From positions 1 through 28,082 of IMG/VR virus record IMGVR_UViG_3300022539_000614: DNA of 28,082 nucleotides; one strand, 5' to 3'. The position numbers and the translations under genes are program-made. Within the stretch, counting starts at the first letter, position 1, and every line of letters begins with the position of its first letter. Source of the DNA: a virus. The notes beneath the pieces are model-generated. The model had not been told where the DNA came from and searched no databases. It saw nothing but the letters and a program-made list of their open reading frames with translations. Of this stretch, positions 1,797-24,916 are shown piece after piece.

Positions 1797-3485
1797 ATGA
1801 ATTTAGAACTTTTTATAGATAATAATTTATTAAATAAGAATAAAAAATTAGAAGGTCAACGATTGACTGAAAACTGGTTCTATAAAAAAAATTTTACTAA
1901 AGAATTTGAATATTTTCAAAAACATAACATATTAAATTCTAAAAATCTCTACACGTATTTATATGACATTAACGATTTGTGTGAATGTGGGAATATGAAG
2001 AGATTTATTGGTTTTAGAGATGGATTTAAGAAGTATTGTAATAATTGTTCTAGAACAAAGTATAATTATATGAAAAGGCAAGGAACGAAAGAAAAACAAT
2101 TAAACAATATTATTAATTTCGTAAAAGACAAAAAAAATAATTATAGTATAAGCAAAATTAAAAAATTATCAGATAAAACTATTAAATTGGTAGAAAATAG
2201 AACTAAGTATTTAGATATTGCAAAAATATCAGAACGATTATATCATATAGAGCATAATCTTTATAAATTACCAAATTGTCGATTGTGTGGTAAAGAACAT
2301 AATAATTTTAAATATTCAAATCATGGTTACTTTAATTACTGTAAATTTAAATGTTCATACAAATATAATAGTGATGTTAGGCGAGAATCTATTCGTAGAA
2401 ATCATTATGAAAAATATAAGGAAAAATATAAATCTACTAATGATTACGACATTAGATTATTCACACTTGATGAATATCTAAATAGTAGTAATTGTTTTGT
2501 TGATTTTACACATAATAAATGCAATCACAAATATACCCTACCTCTTAAATATCAAGGACATTTGAAATGTCCAAAATGTTATCCGATAAGATCAAAAATC
2601 CAATATGAAATTTTTGAATGGTTATCGGAATTTAAAAAATCAAAATTTAATGATAGACAATTTATTAAACCGTTAGAATTAGATATTTTAACAGATACAT
2701 TTGCTATAGAATATGACAGTCTAATGTTTCATAGTACTGGTAAATCTAAACTTGGTATGTTTAATAATTTAATTGAGAATAGAAACTACCACATGAATAA
2801 AACTGAATTGTGTGAAGAACATAATTTACAATTATTCCGAATTTTTAGTAATGAGTGGATTAATAAACAATATATATGGAAAAGTGTAATTAAATCAAAA
2901 CTCGGTATTACCAAAAAGATTTTTGCTAGAAAATGTAGTATAGAAGAAATTAGTGCGGCTAAATCAAAAGAATTCCTAGTGAAAAATCATTTACAGGGAA
3001 GTATAAATTCTAAAGTTAAGATTGGATTATTCTATAATAGTGAAATTGTTTCTGTAATGACATTTGGAAAAAGTAGACGTTCTAAATGGAAAGGAGAAAA
3101 TAAATATGAATTATATAGATTTTGTACTAAATTGAATTATACTGTAGTTGGTGGTGCATCTAAACTACTAAAATACTTCGAGAGAAAATATAAACCCAGA
3201 TGTATAATTAGTTATGCTAATAGAAGATGGAGTACTGGTAATTTGTATAATAAAATTGGTTTTAAATTCATTGAAAATACAACTCCTAACTATTTCTATT
3301 TTAAAGGTGGTGATAATTCTATTTTATTATCGCGTGAAAGTTTTCAAAAACATAAACTAAAAGATAAACTAAAAATATTTGATCCAGATTTAACTGAAAC
3401 AGATAATATGTTTAATAATAACTATAGAAAAATATTTGATTGTGGCAATATGGTATATGTTAAACATTATGATACTTATATTTAG
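1797..3485 (+). CDS. Homing endonuclease-like protein, Zn-finger + EDxHD/Vsr-like nuclease, copy 1
   Basis: This 562-aa free-standing mobile-type endonuclease probably cuts phage genomes lacking it and spreads by recombination. Cys pairs (CECG about residue 62, CNNC about 80, CRLC about 161, CPKC about 258) form likely zinc-binding DNA-contact modules. The nuclease core lies around residues 270-355: LELDILTDTFAIEYD, with E305 and H312 in EYDSLMFHS, then YHMNKTELCEEHNLQLFRIF. This resembles the EDxHD (Vsr-fold) homing endonuclease group. The C-terminal domain (about 375-555; FARKCSIEEI, FYNSEIVSVMTFG, VVGGASKLLKYF, SYANRRWSTGN, YRKIFDCGN) is conserved in such phage proteins and recalls a GNAT-like fold; that last point is inference. 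It shares near-identical 3' DNA with the next gene. It lies between structural genes, typical of homing genes. Whether it is active cannot be judged. Confidence 0.8.
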   Translation: MNLELFIDNNLLNKNKKLEGQRLTENWFYKKNFTKEFEYFQKHNILNSKNLYTYLYDINDLCECGNMKRFIGFRDGFKKYCNNCSRTKYNYMKRQGTKEKQLNNIINFVKDKKNNYSISKIKKLSDKTIKLVENRTKYLDIAKISERLYHIEHNLYKLPNCRLCGKEHNNFKYSNHGYFNYCKFKCSYKYNSDVRRESIRRNHYEKYKEKYKSTNDYDIRLFTLDEYLNSSNCFVDFTHNKCNHKYTLPLKYQGHLKCPKCYPIRSKIQYEIFEWLSEFKKSKFNDRQFIKPLELDILTDTFAIEYDSLMFHSTGKSKLGMFNNLIENRNYHMNKTELCEEHNLQLFRIFSNEWINKQYIWKSVIKSKLGITKKIFARKCSIEEISAAKSKEFLVKNHLQGSINSKVKIGLFYNSEIVSVMTFGKSRRSKWKGENKYELYRFCTKLNYTVVGGASKLLKYFERKYKPRCIISYANRRWSTGNLYNKIGFKFIENTTPNYFYFKGGDNSILLSRESFQKHKLKDKLKIFDPDLTETDNMFNNNYRKIFDCGNMVYVKHYDTYI

Positions 3486-3531: not shown

Positions 3532-5319
3532 ATGTGTAATATATGCAGTAAAGAATCTATAAATGATAATTGTTCAATTGAACATGGTATGGCATTTAGA
3601 TATTTGAAAAAATTCAAATTAAACAAAAGTTCAATACAAGAAATTGTTAATATTAAAACAAATTATACAATCAAAACTAAATATAAAATATGGCAAATGG
3701 GATTATCTATAGAACCAAGATGTTTAATTTGTGATTCTAAACTAACTTTTAAAAAAATAAATAATGAAGTTTTTCTATGTTCAAAAGAATGCAAAAATAA
3801 ATATAAAGAGAGTAATCAACACAAATGTGTATTATGCAATTTAATAAAATGCTATAGTAATTGTAGTTCAAAAAAAAGAGAACTTAAAAAATTCTCAATG
3901 AATGTTGATGAATATATTATTTTTCTACAAGAAAAATATAAAAATTATAATATTGAAGAAATATTACATTTAAATCGTTTATATATTAATAATTTAAATT
4001 CAGATCCAAAATGCAAATTCTGCGGAGCAATTCATCGAAAAAGTAGACATCAGAAATTTTCTCTATGTTGTTCAAAAGAATGTAGCAATGTTTATCAATC
4101 CAAAAAAGTATCATATAAAGAAATTTGTAAATATTACATAAATAAAGGTATATGTGAAAAATTTGTTCATAGTATTAATATTTATGAATTATCTAAAATA
4201 TATAATACTAAAAGAATAGATATCCATAAATGTGATTGTGGAAATTATAATATTGGTCTTAATCCATGTTGCATATTGAAAAAGAGATTTAATAATATAG
4301 AATATTTAAATAAAGATTATTTTAGATCATTCATTAAAAATAAATTATTCAATATTAAAAAAGCTATGAAATTCTATAATTGTTCAGAATCATCAATAAG
4401 ACGATTAAAAGCTAAATATAATATAGATGAAAGATGTAAAAATACTATTGAAGATGAATTGTATAATAAATTTAGTAAATACACAAAAATCAAAAGAAAT
4501 GACCGCATATTAATTAAACCAAAAGAGATAGACTTTTTATTTAATAATTTTGCTATTGAGTATAATGGATTAATGTGGCATAGTGATGGTAATTCAAAAA
4601 GTGCAAAATTTAATCATAAAAATAATAAAAATAAACACTTGAATAAAACTGAATTAGTTGAAGAAACAGGATATCAATTATTCCATATATTCGAGAATGA
4701 ATGGATTAATAATAAAGAAAAATGGATTTCTGTAATAAATAATAAATTAAATAATTCAAAGAAACTTTTTGCTAGAAAATGTACTATAGAAGAAATTGGT
4801 GCAACGAAATGTTCTGCATTCGAGGAAGCTAATCATCTTCAAGGTAAAGGTCTTAGTTCTATTAGAATTGGTCTATTCTACAATAGTGAAATTGTTTCTG
4901 TTATGACATTTGGTAAAAGTAGATTCAATAAGAAATATCAATTCGAATTAATTAGGTTCTGCACTAAGTTAAATACTACCGTTGTTGGTGGTGCATCTAA
5001 ACTACTAAAATACTTCGAGAGAAAATATAAACCCAGATCTATTATTAGTTACGCTAATAGAAGATGGAGTACAGGTAATCTATATGATAAATTGAATTTT
5101 ACATTTAGTCATAATAGTGGACCAAACTATTTCTATTTTAGAGTTGGTGAAAATATTCTTTATAGTAGAAATATGTTTCAAAAACATAAACTTAAAGATA
5201 AATTAAAATTATTTAATTCTGAGTTAACTGAGACAGAGAATATGTTCAATAATAGTTTTAGAAAAATATTTGATTGTGGCAATAAAGTATATGTTAAACA
5301 TTATGATACTTATATTTAG
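3532..5319 (+). CDS. Homing endonuclease-like protein, Zn-finger + HTH + EDxHD/Vsr-like nuclease, copy 2
   Basis: This 595-aa paralog of the preceding gene has more zinc-type Cys clusters in its N-terminal half (CNIC, CLIC, CSKEC, CVLC, CKFC, CSKEC, CDCG). They are followed by a helix-turn-helix-like segment near residue 282 (MKFYNCSESSIRRLKAKYNI) that would bind DNA. The nuclease core is KPKEIDFLFNNFAIEYNGLMWHS (split here: KPKEIDF, then E343 and H350 in EYNGLMWHS), followed by HLNKTELVEETGYQLFHIF. The C-terminal domain matches copy 1 closely, including a 55-bp stretch identical in DNA (4984-5038 versus 3147-3201). The N-terminal halves differ, so target recognition probably differs. The ATG at 3532 has no clear Shine-Dalgarno. 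It lies 46 bases after copy 1. The family is convincing; the specificity is unknown. Confidence 0.8.
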   Translation: MCNICSKESINDNCSIEHGMAFRYLKKFKLNKSSIQEIVNIKTNYTIKTKYKIWQMGLSIEPRCLICDSKLTFKKINNEVFLCSKECKNKYKESNQHKCVLCNLIKCYSNCSSKKRELKKFSMNVDEYIIFLQEKYKNYNIEEILHLNRLYINNLNSDPKCKFCGAIHRKSRHQKFSLCCSKECSNVYQSKKVSYKEICKYYINKGICEKFVHSINIYELSKIYNTKRIDIHKCDCGNYNIGLNPCCILKKRFNNIEYLNKDYFRSFIKNKLFNIKKAMKFYNCSESSIRRLKAKYNIDERCKNTIEDELYNKFSKYTKIKRNDRILIKPKEIDFLFNNFAIEYNGLMWHSDGNSKSAKFNHKNNKNKHLNKTELVEETGYQLFHIFENEWINNKEKWISVINNKLNNSKKLFARKCTIEEIGATKCSAFEEANHLQGKGLSSIRIGLFYNSEIVSVMTFGKSRFNKKYQFELIRFCTKLNTTVVGGASKLLKYFERKYKPRSIISYANRRWSTGNLYDKLNFTFSHNSGPNYFYFRVGENILYSRNMFQKHKLKDKLKLFNSELTETENMFNNSFRKIFDCGNKVYVKHYDTYI

Positions 5320-11495: not shown

Positions 11496-11699
11496 TTAAA
11501 TAACATACTGCTCTAAAAAAGCAGACTTTGACATTTTTATAAAAATATTCTCACCTTGAAAAACACTTTTCATTTTAACGATTGGCTCACGCTTGGCATT
11601 GGCAGGCGTATGAACTTGCCAAAATTTTAAGACCTTACCTGTTGCCTTTTGGTAAACAGTATCACCCAATACCAAATTTTTAAATTCTTTATTAGTCAT
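11496..11699 (-). CDS. Hypothetical early protein, 67 aa
   Basis: A 67-aa basic soluble protein with a GGAG ribosome site 7 bases before ATG. The sequence starts MTNKEFKNLVLGDTVYQKAT and continues GKVLKFWQVHTPANAK, suggesting a small beta-barrel-like or SH3-like fold (inference only). No family is recognised. It is the last gene of a three-gene unit (12161 to 11496) of small proteins transcribed from the promoter at 12210. Confidence 0.65.
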   Translation of the reverse strand: MTNKEFKNLVLGDTVYQKATGKVLKFWQVHTPANAKREPIVKMKSVFQGENIFIKMSKSAFLEQYVI

Positions 11700-11957: not shown

Positions 11958-12161
11958 TTAAATATCGTCAATGATAGATTGACAAATTTTACAATTTTGT
12001 TTAGGTGTTTGGAGGTGTTTTTTCCAGTCGTTAATCATAGGAGTAGCCTCTTTGATAGCCTCGTCTTTAATACTTGAAATGACTTTGACAGTTTTTTGTC
12101 TCATTAAAGGAAAACCGCAAGTATCACAAAAAATCTTAACTTTAAATTTTAACTTATTCAT
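11958..12161 (-). CDS. Small zinc-ribbon-type early protein
   Basis: A 67-aa protein with two Cys pairs, CDTC at about residues 12-15 and CKIC at about 57-60, separated by a helical segment. This spacing suggests one treble-clef or ribbon-type zinc site. The basic N-terminus (MNKLKFKVKIF) could contact nucleic acid or a host protein. No named family is recognised. It has a GAGAG ribosome site and a leader of about 40 bases after the early-type promoter at 12210. Small zinc proteins in early regions are often host-takeover or regulatory factors, but that role is not demonstrated here. Confidence 0.65.
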   Translation of the reverse strand: MNKLKFKVKIFCDTCGFPLMRQKTVKVISSIKDEAIKEATPMINDWKKHLQTPKQNCKICQSIIDDI

Positions 12162-12176
12162 AATTTTTTCTCTCTT

Positions 12177-12246
12177 TTATTCAATAGCATTATTGCTTTT
12201 GATAGTTCTATTATAACATATTTTTTGTACATAAATTAGTTGATTC
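12177..12246 (-). repeat. Duplicated early-promoter cassette, copy A
   Basis: About 70 bases including the extended -10, its upstream flank (to AAATTAGTTGATTCA on the plus strand) and the downstream leader. They recur almost unchanged at 13655-13730. The leader part contains the short inverted repeat AGCATTATTGCT. A whole promoter module seems to have been copied between two transcription units. Confidence 0.8.
12210..12218 (-). promoter_or_regulatory. Early-type extended -10 promoter of the three-gene unit
   Basis: The minus strand reads TGTTATAAT then AGAACTATCAAAA. It lies 48 bases upstream of the ATG at 12161. The upstream part is shared with the promoter at 13693. Confidence 0.75.
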
Positions 12247-12426: not shown

Positions 12427-12837
12427 TTATCTCTTAACAATGCTTGAACCAAAATAGAACCCTACAATTGCTAAAATTGCATGTGGTAAGTATTCAGGAA
12501 CTATCATACCTTCTAATGTGACATATTTAGTATATTTTTCACCAAAGTCAAAGAAGAATAATCTAAAAACATTATCAACTTCAATAGGTACAACAGTTGG
12601 TAAATTAAAAATAGGTGCTAAAAGAATAATATAAGACATACCTATAAATGCTATAACAATAAATCTACGCATCCAAGCAGCATGAGGTGTGTTTATAGCT
12701 CTAGCAGACTCAATATTTTTTCTACGATGATCTCTTTCATTTGCTAAATCTGCATTACTATCTGCTTTTAAGCGAAAATATGCTGAGCCAACAGTACTTA
12801 ATAACATTGTAATAACTTCAAGAGGTAGTCCAAACAT
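12427..12837 (-). CDS. Holin-like membrane protein (3-TM type)
   Basis: A 136-aa protein with three hydrophobic segments: residues about 4-20 (LPLEVITMLLSTVGSAYF), about 58-80 (FIVIAFIGMSYIILLAPIF) and about 115-134 (LPHAILAIVGFYFGSSIVKR). Between the first two is a charged loop (KADSNADLANERDHRRKNIE). This layout fits the 3-TM holin family associated with phage and gene-transfer-agent release. It would form lesions in the inner membrane that let a lytic enzyme out. Directly upstream in the same unit are a tiny membrane protein and a permuted papain-fold hydrolase, which fits a lysis cassette. The ribosome site is weak. The family is likely; the lysis role is inferred. Confidence 0.65.
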   Translation of the reverse strand: MFGLPLEVITMLLSTVGSAYFRLKADSNADLANERDHRRKNIESARAINTPHAAWMRRFIVIAFIGMSYIILLAPIFNLPTVVPIEVDNVFRLFFFDFGEKYTKYVTLEGMIVPEYLPHAILAIVGFYFGSSIVKR

Positions 12838-12869
12838 TATTAGAGACCTAAATTTTTAGTATCATTATT

Positions 12870-12983
12870 TTATAAAACCTCATTTGATTTTAGAAGATTA
12901 GTTGAATCCCAAATGATAGTTACACCCCCATATAATATAAAAATAGATAATAAAATTACTAAATATTTATTTAGATTTTTCAT
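12870..12983 (-). CDS. Tiny single-pass membrane protein, 37 aa
   Basis: The ATG at 12983 lies inside the last codons of the upstream hydrolase gene (17-base overlap) and opens a 37-aa frame: MKNLNKYLVILLSIFILYGG, then VTIIWDSTNLLKSNEVL. It has a basic N-terminus and one clear membrane helix at about residues 8-25, with no lipobox Cys. The overlap implies translational coupling, and it is followed 32 bases later by the holin-like gene. It could be a small holin partner, antiholin or signal-anchored peptide. No family is recognised. Confidence 0.5.
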   Translation of the reverse strand: MKNLNKYLVILLSIFILYGGVTIIWDSTNLLKSNEVL

Positions 12984-13653
12984 GTTTTAATAATTTAGCA
13001 CATCTTGTTGCTTCTAAAGTTTGCAAAACTAAGTTCAAATCTCTGGGACTGATTTTTGATGATTGAAATTTTACTTGATGATTAAAACATTCAGATTTTT
13101 CTAGAACATCAAAAGCAAACTCTGAACATATTGAAGCTGTATTTTCAAAAACAGGAATCTTAAATATAAAACCAAATATAGCCCATAAATCATATTTTCT
13201 ACCAATTTGTTCAGAAACCCAATTTATAGTCTCTTGTGATACCTCAATCTCATAACGTTTTATTTTAGAAAAAGCATTTTCTGTAAATTTTGTTTTTTTA
13301 ATGCCACCAAAAATATGAGCACCAATTAAAATATTTGGTGCATTTGATAGAATTATATCTACATGCCCAAATTTACCTCTAATGACCCATCTAGTAACAC
13401 GACTGATGATACTATTGCTAGCAGATAATTGTATCGTTAATGTAAGATTTAGTGTATTTCCAGTAGTGTATTTATTATCCCGTTGACGCCTATCTGGTCT
13501 CAAAGTTGATTCAGCAATTCTTTTTGGGCCTGGTTTAATTCTCAAAGTTGTATCATCATGCAAGAATTCAGTAAAAAGAACAACAGAGGAAAGAGACTTA
13601 CAATAAACCCTTTCACCCTCTTTTAAATCTTTAAGTTTTTCAAATTTAATCAT
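12967..13653 (-). CDS. Permuted papain-fold (NlpC/P60-like, YiiX-type) cysteine hydrolase
   Basis: A 228-aa protein. I chose the ATG at 13653 (MIKFEKLKDLKEG), preceded by GGAA, because the open frame further upstream runs through the promoter cassette. Residues about 75-185 carry a circularly permuted papain-like pattern: the His comes first (H97 in RGKFGHVDIIL), followed by IGRKYDLWAIFGF and then the putative nucleophile C176 in SICSEFAFDVL. Such enzymes act as peptidases, amidases or acyl-transferring hydrolases. With a tiny membrane protein and a holin-like protein downstream in the same unit, a peptidoglycan-cleaving lysis role is plausible, though a host-modifying or virion role is not excluded. 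There is no signal peptide. The catalytic reading is by motif only. Confidence 0.6.
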   Translation of the reverse strand: MIKFEKLKDLKEGERVYCKSLSSVVLFTEFLHDDTTLRIKPGPKRIAESTLRPDRRQRDNKYTTGNTLNLTLTIQLSASNSIISRVTRWVIRGKFGHVDIILSNAPNILIGAHIFGGIKKTKFTENAFSKIKRYEIEVSQETINWVSEQIGRKYDLWAIFGFIFKIPVFENTASICSEFAFDVLEKSECFNHQVKFQSSKISPRDLNLVLQTLEATRCAKLLKHEKSK

Positions 13654-13654
13654 T

Positions 13655-13730
13655 TTTTTATTCCATAGCATTATTGCTATAATTATAGTTCTATTATAAC
13701 ATATTTTTTGTACATAAATTAGTTGATTCG
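13655..13730 (-). repeat. Duplicated early-promoter cassette, copy B
   Basis: This is nearly identical to 12177-12246, covering leader, -10 and upstream flank. The two copies diverge just beyond GTTGATTC, where this copy continues into a fragment of the hydrolase gene. Confidence 0.8.
13693..13701 (-). promoter_or_regulatory. Early-type extended -10 promoter of the hydrolase/holin unit
   Basis: The minus strand reads TGTTATAAT then AGAACTATAATTA. It lies 39 bases before the chosen start at 13653. Its presence inside the longer open frame argues against starts further upstream. Confidence 0.75.
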
Positions 13731-13766
13731 GCAATTCTTTTTGGACCTGGTTTAATTCCCACAGTT
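13722..13766 (-). pseudogene. 45-base fragment of the hydrolase gene upstream of its own promoter
   Basis: This matches 13505-13549 of the adjacent hydrolase gene at 41 of 45 bases and on the minus strand encodes TVGIKPGPKRIAEST. The intact gene there reads TLRIKPGPKRIAEST. It ends at the junction with the promoter cassette. It is therefore the leftover of a second copy of this gene, or the scar of the recombination that brought the promoter here. The rest of 13798-14020 shows no gene. Confidence 0.75.
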
Positions 13767-14020
13767 TTCTCCAGTTGTAGTTAATAATAGTTTTCACAAC
13801 TTAATATATGGTTAAAATCTGTGAGACCTTTGCGTAACTCACAACTCAACCTTTTAATTTTTTTGTTGTTTAATGGTCATATTATATATTAAATTACTTT
13901 ATATAACTACATTCAATGTAAATTATTCAACATTTTAATTCATTCATTAAATTTAGATTTGACACTAACGATCCAAAACTTATCAGCAGATAAAATATGT
14001 CAGTTAAATATAAGATTAGT

Positions 14021-14046
14021 TCTAATCCCTCTGCAGAGGGATTAGA
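14021..14046 (-). terminator. Perfect 26-bp palindrome after the capsid gene
   Basis: TCTAATCCCTCTG pairs with CAGAGGGATTAGA without a mismatch, giving a strong hairpin 9 bases past the capsid gene stop on the minus strand. No U-run follows in that direction, so it may terminate, stabilise the abundant capsid mRNA 3' end, or bind a dimeric protein. Being a palindrome, it can act on either strand. Confidence 0.6.
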
Positions 14047-22600: not shown

Positions 22601-23276
22601 TTATCAATATAGTGGGAAGAAATTTATTATAACCCCCTATGTCACATCACAAGAAAAAGATCTGCTTCTCCTAAGTACTGTTGGTGAAGCAGATTTGAGT
22701 AATGCACTCTCTATATGTGGTATAAAAGATAGTGTAATTGATAGTTTAACAAATGATGAAAAAGTAGCGATGCTATTCAAATTAAGAGAAATATCAGTTG
22801 GAGAAGATGTTCATCTTAAATTCAAATGTAAGTATTGTTCACAGGGAAATGAGAATAATTTAAAAATTTCTGAATTGATTAAAAGTTCAGATATCAATAA
22901 CGTTAAAATAAAAGATAAATTCATTGAAATTTCAGAGGATAATGTTCAGGATTTTATTGATTTAGATACTGATAACCTTGATATTGAAGATTACGAATCT
23001 ATCGCTAGAGAAGCATTAAATACTGTGACAAAGTTTAATTTTAAAAAACCAATCACATGTCAAAAATGCAACAAAGATAATTATATAAGAATTAATAATC
23101 CAGAATTTGTTATTGATAATCTTAGTGAAGATTCATTAATTAGTTTATATCAAACTTATAATGATTTATCATTTTTTGGAAAATACACAAAACAGGATAT
23201 TGATACATTATATCCATTCGAGAGAACTATTTTAATGAGTCTTTTAAATAAGACAAGAGAGAGCATGAATAAATGA
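22587..23276 (+). CDS. Baseplate hub assembly protein, second gp26/gp51-like paralog
   Basis: A 229-aa protein starting at a GTG (22587) inside the previous gene, with a GGGA ribosome site; no ATG fits. Like its neighbour it has two Cys pairs, CKYC (81-84) and CQKC (158-161), around a mainly helical body, plus LFKLREISVGEDVHLKFKCK leading into the first pair. The shared arrangement shows the two genes derive from a duplication, now diverged. A role in baseplate hub formation is inferred from the T4 family and from the hub genes downstream. The stop overlaps the next start (ATGA), so translation is coupled. Confidence 0.65.
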   Translation: MLKINYQYSGKKFIITPYVTSQEKDLLLLSTVGEADLSNALSICGIKDSVIDSLTNDEKVAMLFKLREISVGEDVHLKFKCKYCSQGNENNLKISELIKSSDINNVKIKDKFIEISEDNVQDFIDLDTDNLDIEDYESIAREALNTVTKFNFKKPITCQKCNKDNYIRINNPEFVIDNLSEDSLISLYQTYNDLSFFGKYTKQDIDTLYPFERTILMSLLNKTRESMNK

Positions 23277-24916
23277 AACCGCTAGTAAAGTTTAATGAAA
23301 AATTAAACATGGACATTGCTACGGAAGAGAGAATTAGCAAAACTAATGAAAAATTAGTCGAATACTTAAAAGATTCTGGAGAGGAAATAGCTGTAGAACA
23401 AGTAGAGTATTTGATTAAAAACCAAAAGAAAGAAAAGAATGCAGATATTAATGAAAATCCTGTATATGAAAAACTTCTTATAACAAATAAGAAAATTTTA
23501 GGTGTACTAAGTAATATTCATCGTGATATGATAGATGAGCAAGACACATCTATTAAATCAACTAGTACTATTGAGAATGAAGGACAAACAAATTTATTAA
23601 ATATGTTAATGTCTAGTGGTGGATTTGGATTTGATATTCCTGAGATTGGTTTTAAATCACGAAAACGCGGTAAATCTAAAGTTAAAAAACCACGTAGTAA
23701 ATCTAAAGTTAAAAAACCACGTAGTAAATCTAAGGTTGAAAAAACTTCAAGAGCTAATAAAAAAATTAGTGGAGGCAGTGCAATTAATAAAACTTCTTCT
23801 AGGGTTAAAGGTATTGGTAAAGTTGCTAAGAATTTAGTAAGATTTGCTAAAGTCGTTCCTGGTTTGGGACTTATTGTTACTGCAGGTATGGCTATATATG
23901 ATGGTGTTGAAGGTTATGATAACGCATCAGAAATTCTTGGTATACCAGAGGATGAATTAACACTGGGCAATAAAATTACAGCTACTGCTAGTTCTATTAT
24001 TTCTGGGTTGACATTTGGTTTAGTTAATTCTAGTAATCTTGCTAAAGGAATACAAAATATATCAGGTAGTAATGAAGTTATTAATGCCGTAACTAAAGCA
24101 GGTATTATAGACCACGATTTAATTGGTAAATCTGAAATTGAAGATTGGGATAGGTTTGCACAATTGCCTTCTAATCAAATACAAGACATTATTGATATTG
24201 ACGATTGGTCAGATGTAGATTTAAATCATATGAAAGAGTTGTTTGAAGCATCAAAATTAAGAGAAGAAGTTCTTCCTTCGACTCTTGGTAAAAGTGTTGA
24301 TTCGAAAATCGCAGTTAAATTTATAGAAAAACTTTCTGATTTTAAAGTACAGAAAAATAAAGATGCTAAATGGTTAAATAATAAACAAGCAGCAATAAAT
24401 GCAGCTAAACAAATCCCTGAGATTCAAAAAACTATCAAATCTTTAGAATCGCAAATTATTATTCTTAAAAGGCGCAAGGCTGAAGCATTAACTCCCGATG
24501 ATAAAATTCAACTTCAGAATACTATCAAACAGACAACTAAAACAAAAGATTCATTATCTAAACAATTAGATATGATTAAAAATAATTCCAGTAAATATAT
24601 TAAAACTCAAAGTTCTCCAAACATTGGTAGTGGTTTACAAATTGATGAACCTAAGAAAACTTCAGATATACCAACAAAGAAAACATCAAAAGATATTATT
24701 CCAGAAGCGACAGTGATTGAAACAAGTAGGATTAATAAAGAAAATATTATTGATGATTCCCATAAAAATTTAACAAAACAAGTAGTTATATATGAAAGTG
24801 CAAAACGTTCAAATACATCACCAATTCAAGATATGCAAGCAGTAATAAAAACCAATATAAATAATATGATGACTCAGAATGTTGGGCAAGAAAAAATACT
24901 AAATATTTTTTCGTAA
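23273..24916 (+). CDS. Probable tape measure / hub protein (gp29-like)
   Basis: A 547-aa protein starting in an ATGA overlap with the previous gene. The order (hub assembly proteins, this gene, tube cap) and size match T4 gp29 (590 aa), the tail length determinator that also belongs to the hub. Features in order: a charged helical N-terminus; a very basic segment with tandem KSKVKKPRS units (about residues 134-158); a hydrophobic Gly/Ala-rich stretch (about 180-265, VPGLGLIVTAGMAIYDGVEG, then ITATASSIISGLTFGLV) typical of tape measure proteins that insert into the membrane; a coiled-coil region (about 370-440); and a polar C-terminus. Sequence identity to gp29 is not obvious, so the name rests on context and features. 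Confidence 0.6.
   Translation: MKPLVKFNEKLNMDIATEERISKTNEKLVEYLKDSGEEIAVEQVEYLIKNQKKEKNADINENPVYEKLLITNKKILGVLSNIHRDMIDEQDTSIKSTSTIENEGQTNLLNMLMSSGGFGFDIPEIGFKSRKRGKSKVKKPRSKSKVKKPRSKSKVEKTSRANKKISGGSAINKTSSRVKGIGKVAKNLVRFAKVVPGLGLIVTAGMAIYDGVEGYDNASEILGIPEDELTLGNKITATASSIISGLTFGLVNSSNLAKGIQNISGSNEVINAVTKAGIIDHDLIGKSEIEDWDRFAQLPSNQIQDIIDIDDWSDVDLNHMKELFEASKLREEVLPSTLGKSVDSKIAVKFIEKLSDFKVQKNKDAKWLNNKQAAINAAKQIPEIQKTIKSLESQIIILKRRKAEALTPDDKIQLQNTIKQTTKTKDSLSKQLDMIKNNSSKYIKTQSSPNIGSGLQIDEPKKTSDIPTKKTSKDIIPEATVIETSRINKENIIDDSHKNLTKQVVIYESAKRSNTSPIQDMQAVIKTNINNMMTQNVGQEKILNIFS
23672..23745 (+). repeat. 27-bp tandem repeat in the tape-measure-like gene
   Basis: Two identical 27-base units (23672-23698, 23699-23725) and a partial third encode KSKVKKPRS repeats, giving a run of basic residues. 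Confidence 0.9.

What the first reader, a model, noticed from the sequence alone, without database searches (positions are those of the whole stretch)
12427..13653. Possible unusual lysis cassette built on a permuted papain-fold enzyme
One early-type unit encodes a hydrolase with His before Cys (H97, C176), a 37-aa single-pass membrane peptide overlapping its end, and a 3-TM holin-like protein. No classical T4-type lysozyme or amidase appears in the window. If this is the lysis module, it uses an atypical enzyme and early promoters.
Basis: inference. Interest (0 to 1): 0.5.

Follow-up and report, generated by a model that had tools for sequence, protein, structure and literature searches.

The report
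Phage membrane-lipid enzyme beside holin-like gene
A T4-like virus of bacteria carries a real but known-type papain-like enzyme next to a holin-like membrane gene; it resembles enzymes that work on fats in membranes, and the virus probably keeps its ordinary cell-wall-cutting enzyme elsewhere in its genome.

Summary
The genes are real. The 228-aa product has a permuted NlpC/P60 (YaeF/YiiX-like) fold: phrog_1128 E 2.9e-16, confident model of residues 68-228 (pLDDT 84), best solved matches YiiX (Z 11.8) and BcPPNE (Z 11.6). His97, Tyr154 and Cys176 match BcPPNE's catalytic residues; its Glu64 is Gly111 here. The endolysin reading is disfavoured: in 10 of 22 family neighbourhoods read, a separate ordinary peptidoglycan hydrolase is present, and three relatives of this phage (191, 205 and 45 kb) encode a GH19-type endolysin 31-37 kb from the capsid gene, beyond the window's reach. 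Permuted relatives are linked to lipids (PMC3142127, PMC12994826). The 136-aa protein has one clear TM helix and partly lysis-like company elsewhere, but no holin-family match. The 37-aa peptide may be chance. The unit follows an early-type promoter-like element, duplicated 1.5 kb away, though a plain sigma-70 scan did not list it. Best reading: an accessory enzyme acting on lipids or lipidated proteins at the membrane. New member of a known kind; modest interest.

The parts
12967..13653 (-). Permuted NlpC/P60 (YaeF/YiiX-like) enzyme, 228 aa; catalytic domain about residues 68-228 (His97, Tyr154, Cys176); residues 1-67 are an extension absent from the closest relative
   Evidence: relative P0010 (58%) aligns from residue 72 of this protein
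12870..12983 (-). 37-aa ORF with one hydrophobic segment, overlapping the enzyme gene by 17 nt; gene status unproven
   Evidence: no relative among loci held; chance frequency
12427..12837 (-). 136-aa holin-like membrane protein (one clear TM helix plus two weaker hydrophobic segments); family also in pelagiphages and roseophages
   Evidence: (phrog_38283 E 3.1e-7, function unknown)
13693..13715 (-). Early-type (extended -10, TGTTATAAT) promoter-like element before the enzyme gene; not listed by the plain sigma-70 scan
12210..12232 (-). Second copy of the same element, before the next unit (ORF 11958-12161)
   Evidence: 45 nt identical: 12202-12246 and 13685-13729
13504..13554 (-). 51-nt stretch inside the 5' part of the enzyme gene, repeated at 88% at 13721-13771 upstream of the promoter-like element

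Best explanation
The unit encodes a phage-borne YaeF/YiiX-type permuted NlpC/P60 enzyme together with one, perhaps two, small membrane proteins. The enzyme is most likely not the endolysin. It most likely forms an acyl-thioester on Cys176 (helped by His97 and Tyr154) and cuts or transfers acyl groups of membrane phospholipids or lipidated proteins from the cytoplasmic face of the inner membrane, where its probably co-transcribed partner (the 136-aa holin-like protein) sits. Because it is behind an early-type element without a late motif, it probably acts during takeover or primes the membrane, while a GH19-type endolysin encoded elsewhere does the cell-wall cutting. Shown here: fold, catalytic His/Tyr/Cys, family, gene order, repeated promoter-like element, endolysin in relatives. 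Inferred: chemistry, substrate, place of action, partnership, timing, and the lysin of this very phage.
For: phrog_1128 E 2.9e-16; family profile finds BcPPNE 3kw0 (E 4.3e-11) and YiiX 2if6 (E 1.5e-5); model pLDDT 84.1, pTM 0.80; VIA Z 11.8 YiiX, 11.6 BcPPNE, 9.4 TseH, 6.6 PLAAT4, 6.5 HRASLS3; Foldseek best PDB hits are the same two proteins at E 3.4e-3 and 1.7e-2, and phage proteins labelled YaeF/YiiX C92 are among 13 viral models at E 0.001 or better. Passages: YiiX holds a putative fatty acid and permuted enzymes have a hydrophobic S1 pocket (PMC3142127); Tox-Act1 is a phospholipase and TseH showed such activity in one assay (PMC12994826); the YiiX-like LnsA is needed for lipoprotein N-acylation (PMC7387801). 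Separate cell-wall hydrolase in 10 of 22 neighbourhoods read. GH19 endolysin in pv27 and, as relatives, in a 205-kb and a 45-kb contig (3 of 17 records, window included). No 19-residue window above 1.43 in the enzyme, so no sign of a signal peptide or SAR anchor.
Against: In the passages I read no phrog_1128 protein was assayed. BcPPNE and YiiX were proposed to be amidases on lipid-amino-acid bonds, and TseH had earlier been proposed to be an endopeptidase; in PMC12994826 TseH was inactive in the mass-spectrometry assay and Tox-Act1 in the liposome assay, so the lipid evidence is assay-dependent. The acidic catalytic position (Glu64 in BcPPNE) is Gly111 here and Gly in the closest relative, so activity is not certain. 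Foldseek E-values to the PDB are weak, and Z below 8 (PLAAT) may be only a common arrangement. The endolysin of this very phage has not been seen (0 in the window). The plain promoter scan did not list the early element.
Confidence: 0.45

Rival explanations
1. One reading: the enzyme is the phage's endolysin (a peptidoglycan amidase/endopeptidase), released by the 136-aa holin, with the 37-aa peptide as a helper.
For: NlpC/P60 superfamily contains peptidoglycan peptidases; holin-like neighbour; P0002-family genes share one base with a Hydrolase_2 cell-wall hydrolase gene in roseophage CRP-603 and with an SLT-domain gene in CRP-5 (PHROGs place the latter nearer to unknown and baseplate-hub families); no other lysin seen in the window.
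Against: GH19 endolysin in three relatives, 31-37 kb from the capsid gene, beyond the reach of the window; family members found near ordinary peptidoglycan hydrolases (10 of 22 neighbourhoods); the permuted branch is lipid-linked in the papers; early-type element, no late motif in the unit.
Confidence: 0.12
2. Tail- or virion-associated enzyme: it rides with or helps assemble the tail fibre and acts on the envelope at entry.
For: In several relatives the gene follows tail or structural genes: Alteromonas V22, ctfzr933, Vibrio sm033, Pasteurella Pmp12, and within a few genes in Goe3, MaeS and Geobacillus E3; by eye also L044, L101, L103, L105-L108. PMC9703825 counts such a gene among tail genes and says such enzymes act early in infection (passages).
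Against: In the window the gene is not in the tail cluster and has no T4-type late motif, unlike the capsid (15484) and scaffold (16329) genes.
Confidence: 0.18
3. Late lysis accessory: the enzyme works at host exit with the holin-like protein, attacking membrane lipids or envelope lipoproteins (the part that spanins play in other phages), with the endolysin elsewhere.
For: Holin genes lie close to family members in L045, L101, L107, L108 and, by annotation, in Geobacillus E3 and Exiguobacterium phage EalM-132; a holin-like gene here; lipid-linked relatives. Read-through from the capsid gene on the same strand is possible (401 nt gap).
Against: The unit's own element is early-type; the holin assignment rests on hydropathy and company only (no holin family).
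Confidence: 0.2
4. Inactive or decaying gene captured by promoter-cassette recombination.
For: Acidic catalytic position is Gly; repeats at the 5' end of the gene; N-terminal 67 aa resemble the product of the neighbouring ORF 11496-11699 (3 of 500 shuffles reach the score, best of 8 comparisons, uncorrected).
Against: Open frame of 228 codons; His, Tyr, Cys and fold core intact; closest relative shares the Gly and is also open.
Confidence: 0.05

Closest known systems
PHROG 1128 phage proteins ('enoyl-CoA hydratase/carnithine racemase-like', elsewhere annotated 'permuted papain-like amidase', YaeF/YiiX, C92)
   Same: Sequence family (E 2.9e-16), His/Tyr/Cys, size of the core domain
   Different: 67-aa N-terminal extension against the closest relative; acidic position is Gly; not in a tail cluster; early-type element
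BcPPNE (PDB 3kw0, Bacillus cereus) and YiiX (PDB 2if6, E. coli)
   Same: Permuted NlpC/P60 fold, catalytic His/Tyr/Cys
   Different: BcPPNE has Glu64 where this protein has Gly111; about 17% identity; bacterial, not phage, proteins
Tox-Act1 / TseH permuted NlpC/P60 effectors
   Same: Permuted fold; TseH Z 9.4
   Different: Secreted antibacterial effectors (PMC12994826); no such context seen here
Pelagiphage/roseophage membrane protein family (phrog_38283; CRP-603, CRP-5, HTVC024P)
   Same: The 136-aa protein is a member (27-33% to cultured phages, up to 64% to viral contigs)
   Different: There it lies near tail, terminase or cell-wall hydrolase genes; the window enzyme has no relative in those 31 viral loci

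Membership tests
Permuted NlpC/P60 (YaeF/YiiX-like, PPNE) | His before Cys on a papain-like core | tested here: met
   H97, C176 invariant in 13 of 13 rows; model matches YiiX and BcPPNE
Permuted NlpC/P60 (YaeF/YiiX-like, PPNE) | Conserved active-site Tyr | tested here: met
   Y154 aligns with Tyr127 of BcPPNE (residue mapping by hand)
Permuted NlpC/P60 (YaeF/YiiX-like, PPNE) | Third polar catalytic residue (Glu64 in BcPPNE); not strictly defining, since it was suggested to be dispensable in LRAT and is Phe in PPPDE1 (PMC3142127) | tested here: not met
   Gly111 in that column, Gly also in P0010
Permuted NlpC/P60 (YaeF/YiiX-like, PPNE) | Hydrophobic S1 pocket, lipid-directed activity | not testable with these tools
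   needs coordinates and assay
Phage endolysin | Peptidoglycan-cleaving domain of a known family or PG-binding domain | tested here: inconclusive
   no Pfam family listed at E 10 or below and PF01471 not in the window record; but Pfam listed no family at all, so its silence is weak
Phage endolysin | Muralytic activity, sole lysin of the phage | not testable with these tools
   the record is a fragment; three relatives carry a GH19-type lysin
Holin (136-aa protein) | Match to a named holin family | tested here: inconclusive
   none in Pfam for 14 members at E 0.1; P0002 hits only unknown-function PHROGs
Holin (136-aa protein) | Small membrane protein with 1-3 TM segments beside lysis genes | tested here: inconclusive
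   one clear TM; beside Hydrolase_2 in CRP-603; the gene before it hits hemolysin (E 4e-6) and holin (E 0.0066) PHROGs in L032 and hemolysin in L014; but beside tail or terminase genes too
Spanin / pinholin (37-aa peptide) | Conserved small TM gene in the cassette | tested here: inconclusive
   no relatives among loci held; 31-34 aa TM ORFs directly precede the P0002 homologue in 4 of 23 distinct loci, not matched by the 37-aa peptide in blastp

The most novel reading that the evidence does not exclude
A phage membrane-remodelling module: an early-made permuted NlpC/P60 acyl hydrolase/acyltransferase works with a holin-like partner on the inner membrane or on envelope lipoproteins, a lipid-directed step added to holin-endolysin-spanin lysis or to takeover. 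The recurrent place of this enzyme family between tail and holin/endolysin genes in different phages would then mark a general, unrecognised lipid step in phage infection or exit.
Probability: 0.15. Interest if true: 0.7.

Novelty: new member of a known kind. Interest (0 to 1): 0.3.

Why it matters
PHROG 1128 is named after enoyl-CoA hydratase, although the members looked at here carry the His/Tyr/Cys of permuted papain-like enzymes. In the papers found (searches; passages of six read, the rest seen as listings) I saw no assay of a phage member. The recurrent position of the gene near tail and lysis genes, combined with lipid activity reported for cellular relatives, gives a simple testable idea: a lipid- or lipoprotein-directed step in phage infection. 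For the finding itself the practical point is that the gene should not be listed as the phage's endolysin.

Tried and rejected
Single-sequence structure prediction of the full protein failed (pLDDT 32); replaced by residues 68-228 with 13 rows. The N-terminal 67 aa were therefore not modelled with confidence. Searches with the window enzyme alone found nothing close: no confirmed relative from its own viral scan, none in the phage records at E 0.01, only weak hits at E 10, no PDB sequence by phmmer. Bacterial genome contigs gave none with the A3 alignment or with P0011. phrog_1128 was not found in 10 P0002-bearing records or in 16 capsid-related records; P0002 was not found in 17 records, without a positive control. 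A viral scan with a Vibrio-type alignment returned no confirmed locus.

Canonical (non-permuted) NlpC/P60 peptidoglycan hydrolases did not appear among the PDB rows shown; this does not exclude distant likeness.

Counting neighbourhoods: 22 distinct loci were read (L039, L044-L049, L051-L053, L055-L057, L101-L103, L105-L109, L112). Dropped first: L100 (=L045), L104 (=L103), L110 and L111 (copies or near copies of L109), L113 (=L057), L054 (near copy of L053), L050 (=L044), and L040 (Vibrio ValKK3) as too weak a match. Of the phage records matched only 13 were opened, so this is a sample. A separate peptidoglycan hydrolase was recognised in 10 (L045, L101, L102, L103, L106, L107, L108, L112 by Pfam; L052, L057 by annotation). 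The other 12 were judged from annotation or translation only, so 10 is a lower bound. All 10 look like phages of Gram-positive hosts (L052, L057 from the record names; the rest my judgement from gene types). Among the others, tail or structural genes lie within a few genes upstream in eight (L044, L047-L049, L051, L053, L055, L105; partly by eye), L109 lies in a ribonucleotide reductase cluster (by eye), and L039, L046, L056 have only hypothetical proteins around.

The T4-type late motif TATAAATA as a whole is not enriched in the window (15 found, 13.0 expected); only its positions just upstream of structural genes suggest function. Paper searches gave nothing used here.

Full report
Observation. 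The enzyme gene is 12967-13653, the 37-aa frame overlaps its end by 17 nt, and the 136-aa frame follows after 32 nt. In 200 mononucleotide shuffles of the region no open stretch exceeded 121 codons. His97 and Cys176 are present. The 136-aa protein has one clear TM helix and two weaker hydrophobic segments, so '3-TM' is a fair guess but not shown. The 37-aa frame may be chance: random sequence of this make-up yields on average 1.85 such hydrophobic short frames per 28 kb, the window has 3, and no relative turned up in the loci held.

What the enzyme is. PHROG 1128 matches residues 80-212 (E 2.9e-16). Depositors call members either enoyl-CoA hydratase-like or permuted papain-like amidase. The closest relative found is 58% identical over residues 72-216 in a viral contig (L044). 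An alignment of 13 members keeps His97, Tyr154, Asp155 and Cys176 in all rows. Its profile finds the solved permuted NlpC/P60 enzymes BcPPNE (3kw0, E 4.3e-11) and YiiX (2if6, E 1.5e-5). The domain model (pLDDT 84.1, pTM 0.80) matches YiiX at Z 11.8, BcPPNE at 11.6, TseH at 9.4 and human PLAAT/HRASLS proteins at about 6.5. Foldseek alone is weaker: best PDB E 3.4e-3, none at 0.001; in the viral library 13 models reach 0.001, two of them named YaeF/YiiX C92 amidase. By residue mapping through, His97, Tyr154 and Cys176 stand for His49, Tyr127 and Cys154 of BcPPNE; Glu64 is replaced by Gly111, and by Gly in the closest relative as well. Vibrio phage pir03's member is likewise annotated yiiX (PMC7765460, passage).

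What such enzymes do. From passages read: YiiX was crystallised with a putative fatty acid and the permuted enzymes studied share a hydrophobic S1 pocket; the authors propose amidases on lipid-amino-acid bonds (PMC3142127). Tox-Act1 cleaves phosphatidylglycerol and phosphatidylethanolamine in a mass-spectrometry assay but was inactive in a liposome assay; TseH, once proposed to be an endopeptidase, was active only in the liposome assay at pH 8.9 (PMC12994826). The YiiX-like LnsA is needed for lipoprotein N-acylation (PMC7387801). Peptidoglycan hydrolysis is assigned there to the canonical, non-permuted families. In phage papers the gene is filed under protein catabolism (PMC7289586, one passage) or host cell wall degradation at the start of infection (PMC9703825, passages); the passages seen show no assay of it.

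Neighbourhoods of the family. Of 22 distinct loci read, 10 have a separate, ordinary peptidoglycan hydrolase in the stretch read: Amidase_2 in L045, L101, L106, L108; Amidase_3 in L103; Peptidase_M15_4 in L102, L107; GH25 and M15_4 in L112 (Pfam; positions); annotated endolysin or amidase in Geobacillus virus E3 and Exiguobacterium phage EalM-132. Holin-family genes are near in L045, L101, L107 and L108. In eight others tail or structural genes lie within a few genes upstream (partly by eye). So the family keeps company with tail and lysis genes but, where a lysin is recognised, does not stand in for it. All ten lysin-bearing loci look Gram-positive, so this does not transfer automatically to the window's phage.

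The phage and its lysin. The window is the whole 28,082-bp record. Its capsid protein is 65.6% identical to Vibrio phages pv27 and phiKT1024 and related to 38 viral-contig loci. pv27 (191 kb) has a dedicated endolysin gene with GH19 and PG-binding domains, besides an 878-aa baseplate-region gene also labelled endolysin and a tail lysozyme gene. The dedicated lysin has relatives in the 205-kb contig (64%) and a 45-kb contig (54%): 3 of 17 records including pv27 itself, none in the window; the other records are short fragments. From the coordinates I compute distances of 30.9, 36.8 and 31.5 kb from the capsid gene. The window reaches 14 kb and 12.6 kb either side of its capsid gene, so the missing lysin is expected. 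None of 16 capsid-related records (mostly fragments) had phrog_1128, so the enzyme looks like an accessory gene.

The membrane protein. The 136-aa protein has relatives in 31 viral loci (23 distinct arrangements) and 24 phage records, chiefly pelagiphages and roseophages. In CRP-603 its gene shares one base with a cell-wall hydrolase gene (Hydrolase_2 E 1.4e-23). The gene before it hits hemolysin and holin PHROGs in L032 and hemolysin in L014. Elsewhere its neighbours are tail or terminase genes; one downstream gene (L017) hits both a PHROG labelled lysis/amidase and a head-closure PHROG. In 4 of 23 distinct loci a 31-34 aa hydrophobic frame lies directly before it, and in 13 a longer frame with a segment scoring 1.6 or more ends within 160 nt upstream. 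No holin family matches. Holin is thus plausible by company, not proven. None of the 31 viral loci carries a relative of the window enzyme.

Expression. The unit starts behind TGTACA-N5-TATGTTATAAT, identical over 45 nt to the copy before ORF 11958-12161; the plain sigma-70 scan did not list it. TATAAATA lies about 20-35 nt upstream of the capsid, scaffold and 18911-19465 genes and not in the unit. A 51-nt stretch of the enzyme's 5' part is repeated at 88% upstream of the promoter-like element, and the N-terminal 67 residues, missing from the closest relative, weakly resemble the product of ORF 11496-11699. This suggests that a promoter and gene front end were joined to a permuted papain domain by recombination; it is an inference.

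Verdict. A genuine, modestly unusual accessory unit. I file the enzyme as a new member of the permuted NlpC/P60 (YaeF/YiiX-like) kind. A lipid or lipidated-protein substrate at the membrane is my best reading (0.45); lysis accessory, tail-borne enzyme and endolysin follow (0.2, 0.18, 0.12).

Noticed in passing
window 1797-3485 and 3532-5319: Two similar large ORFs side by side, probably the two members that hit homing/HNH endonuclease PHROGs in the window-wide scan (one search does not name the members; assignment by eye). Similar large ORFs follow the capsid gene in several relatives (L061, L067, L068, L070, by eye).
   Followed up: no
window 23273-24916 and pv27 28681-31317 (L096): The window ORF (547 aa) looks like a shorter version of the pv27 baseplate-region protein labelled endolysin (878 aa) and seems to lack its C-terminal peptidase-like part (by eye; only phrog_26249 hits).
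   Followed up: no
L045 2884-5369 (IMGVR_UViG_2929886851_000001): A reverse transcriptase-like ORF follows a putative variable tail protein, which looks like a diversity-generating retroelement, shortly before the permuted papain gene and the lysis genes (by eye).
   Followed up: no
L064 13311-14148, L078 6864-8005, L092 12707-13835: Relatives of this phage carry other small membrane-type genes near DHFR/thymidylate synthase; possibly their holin-like genes at an equivalent place (only a weak unknown-function PHROG for one of the two tested).
   Followed up: partly
L044 2401-2802: In the closest enzyme relative the gene overlaps by four bases a 133-aa putative lipoprotein (by eye) with a C-terminal TM segment, another membrane partner; no Pfam match.
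   Followed up: partly
L072 7122-7946 and L074 14095-14919: A flagellin-like ORF lies near DHFR/thymidylate synthase in two capsid-related contigs, odd for a phage (by eye).
   Followed up: no
window 14022-14045: A perfect 24-nt palindrome (CTAATCCCTCTGCAGAGGGATTAG) lies just after the capsid gene stop, a possible terminator between the capsid gene and the unit; not flagged by the terminator scan.
   Followed up: no
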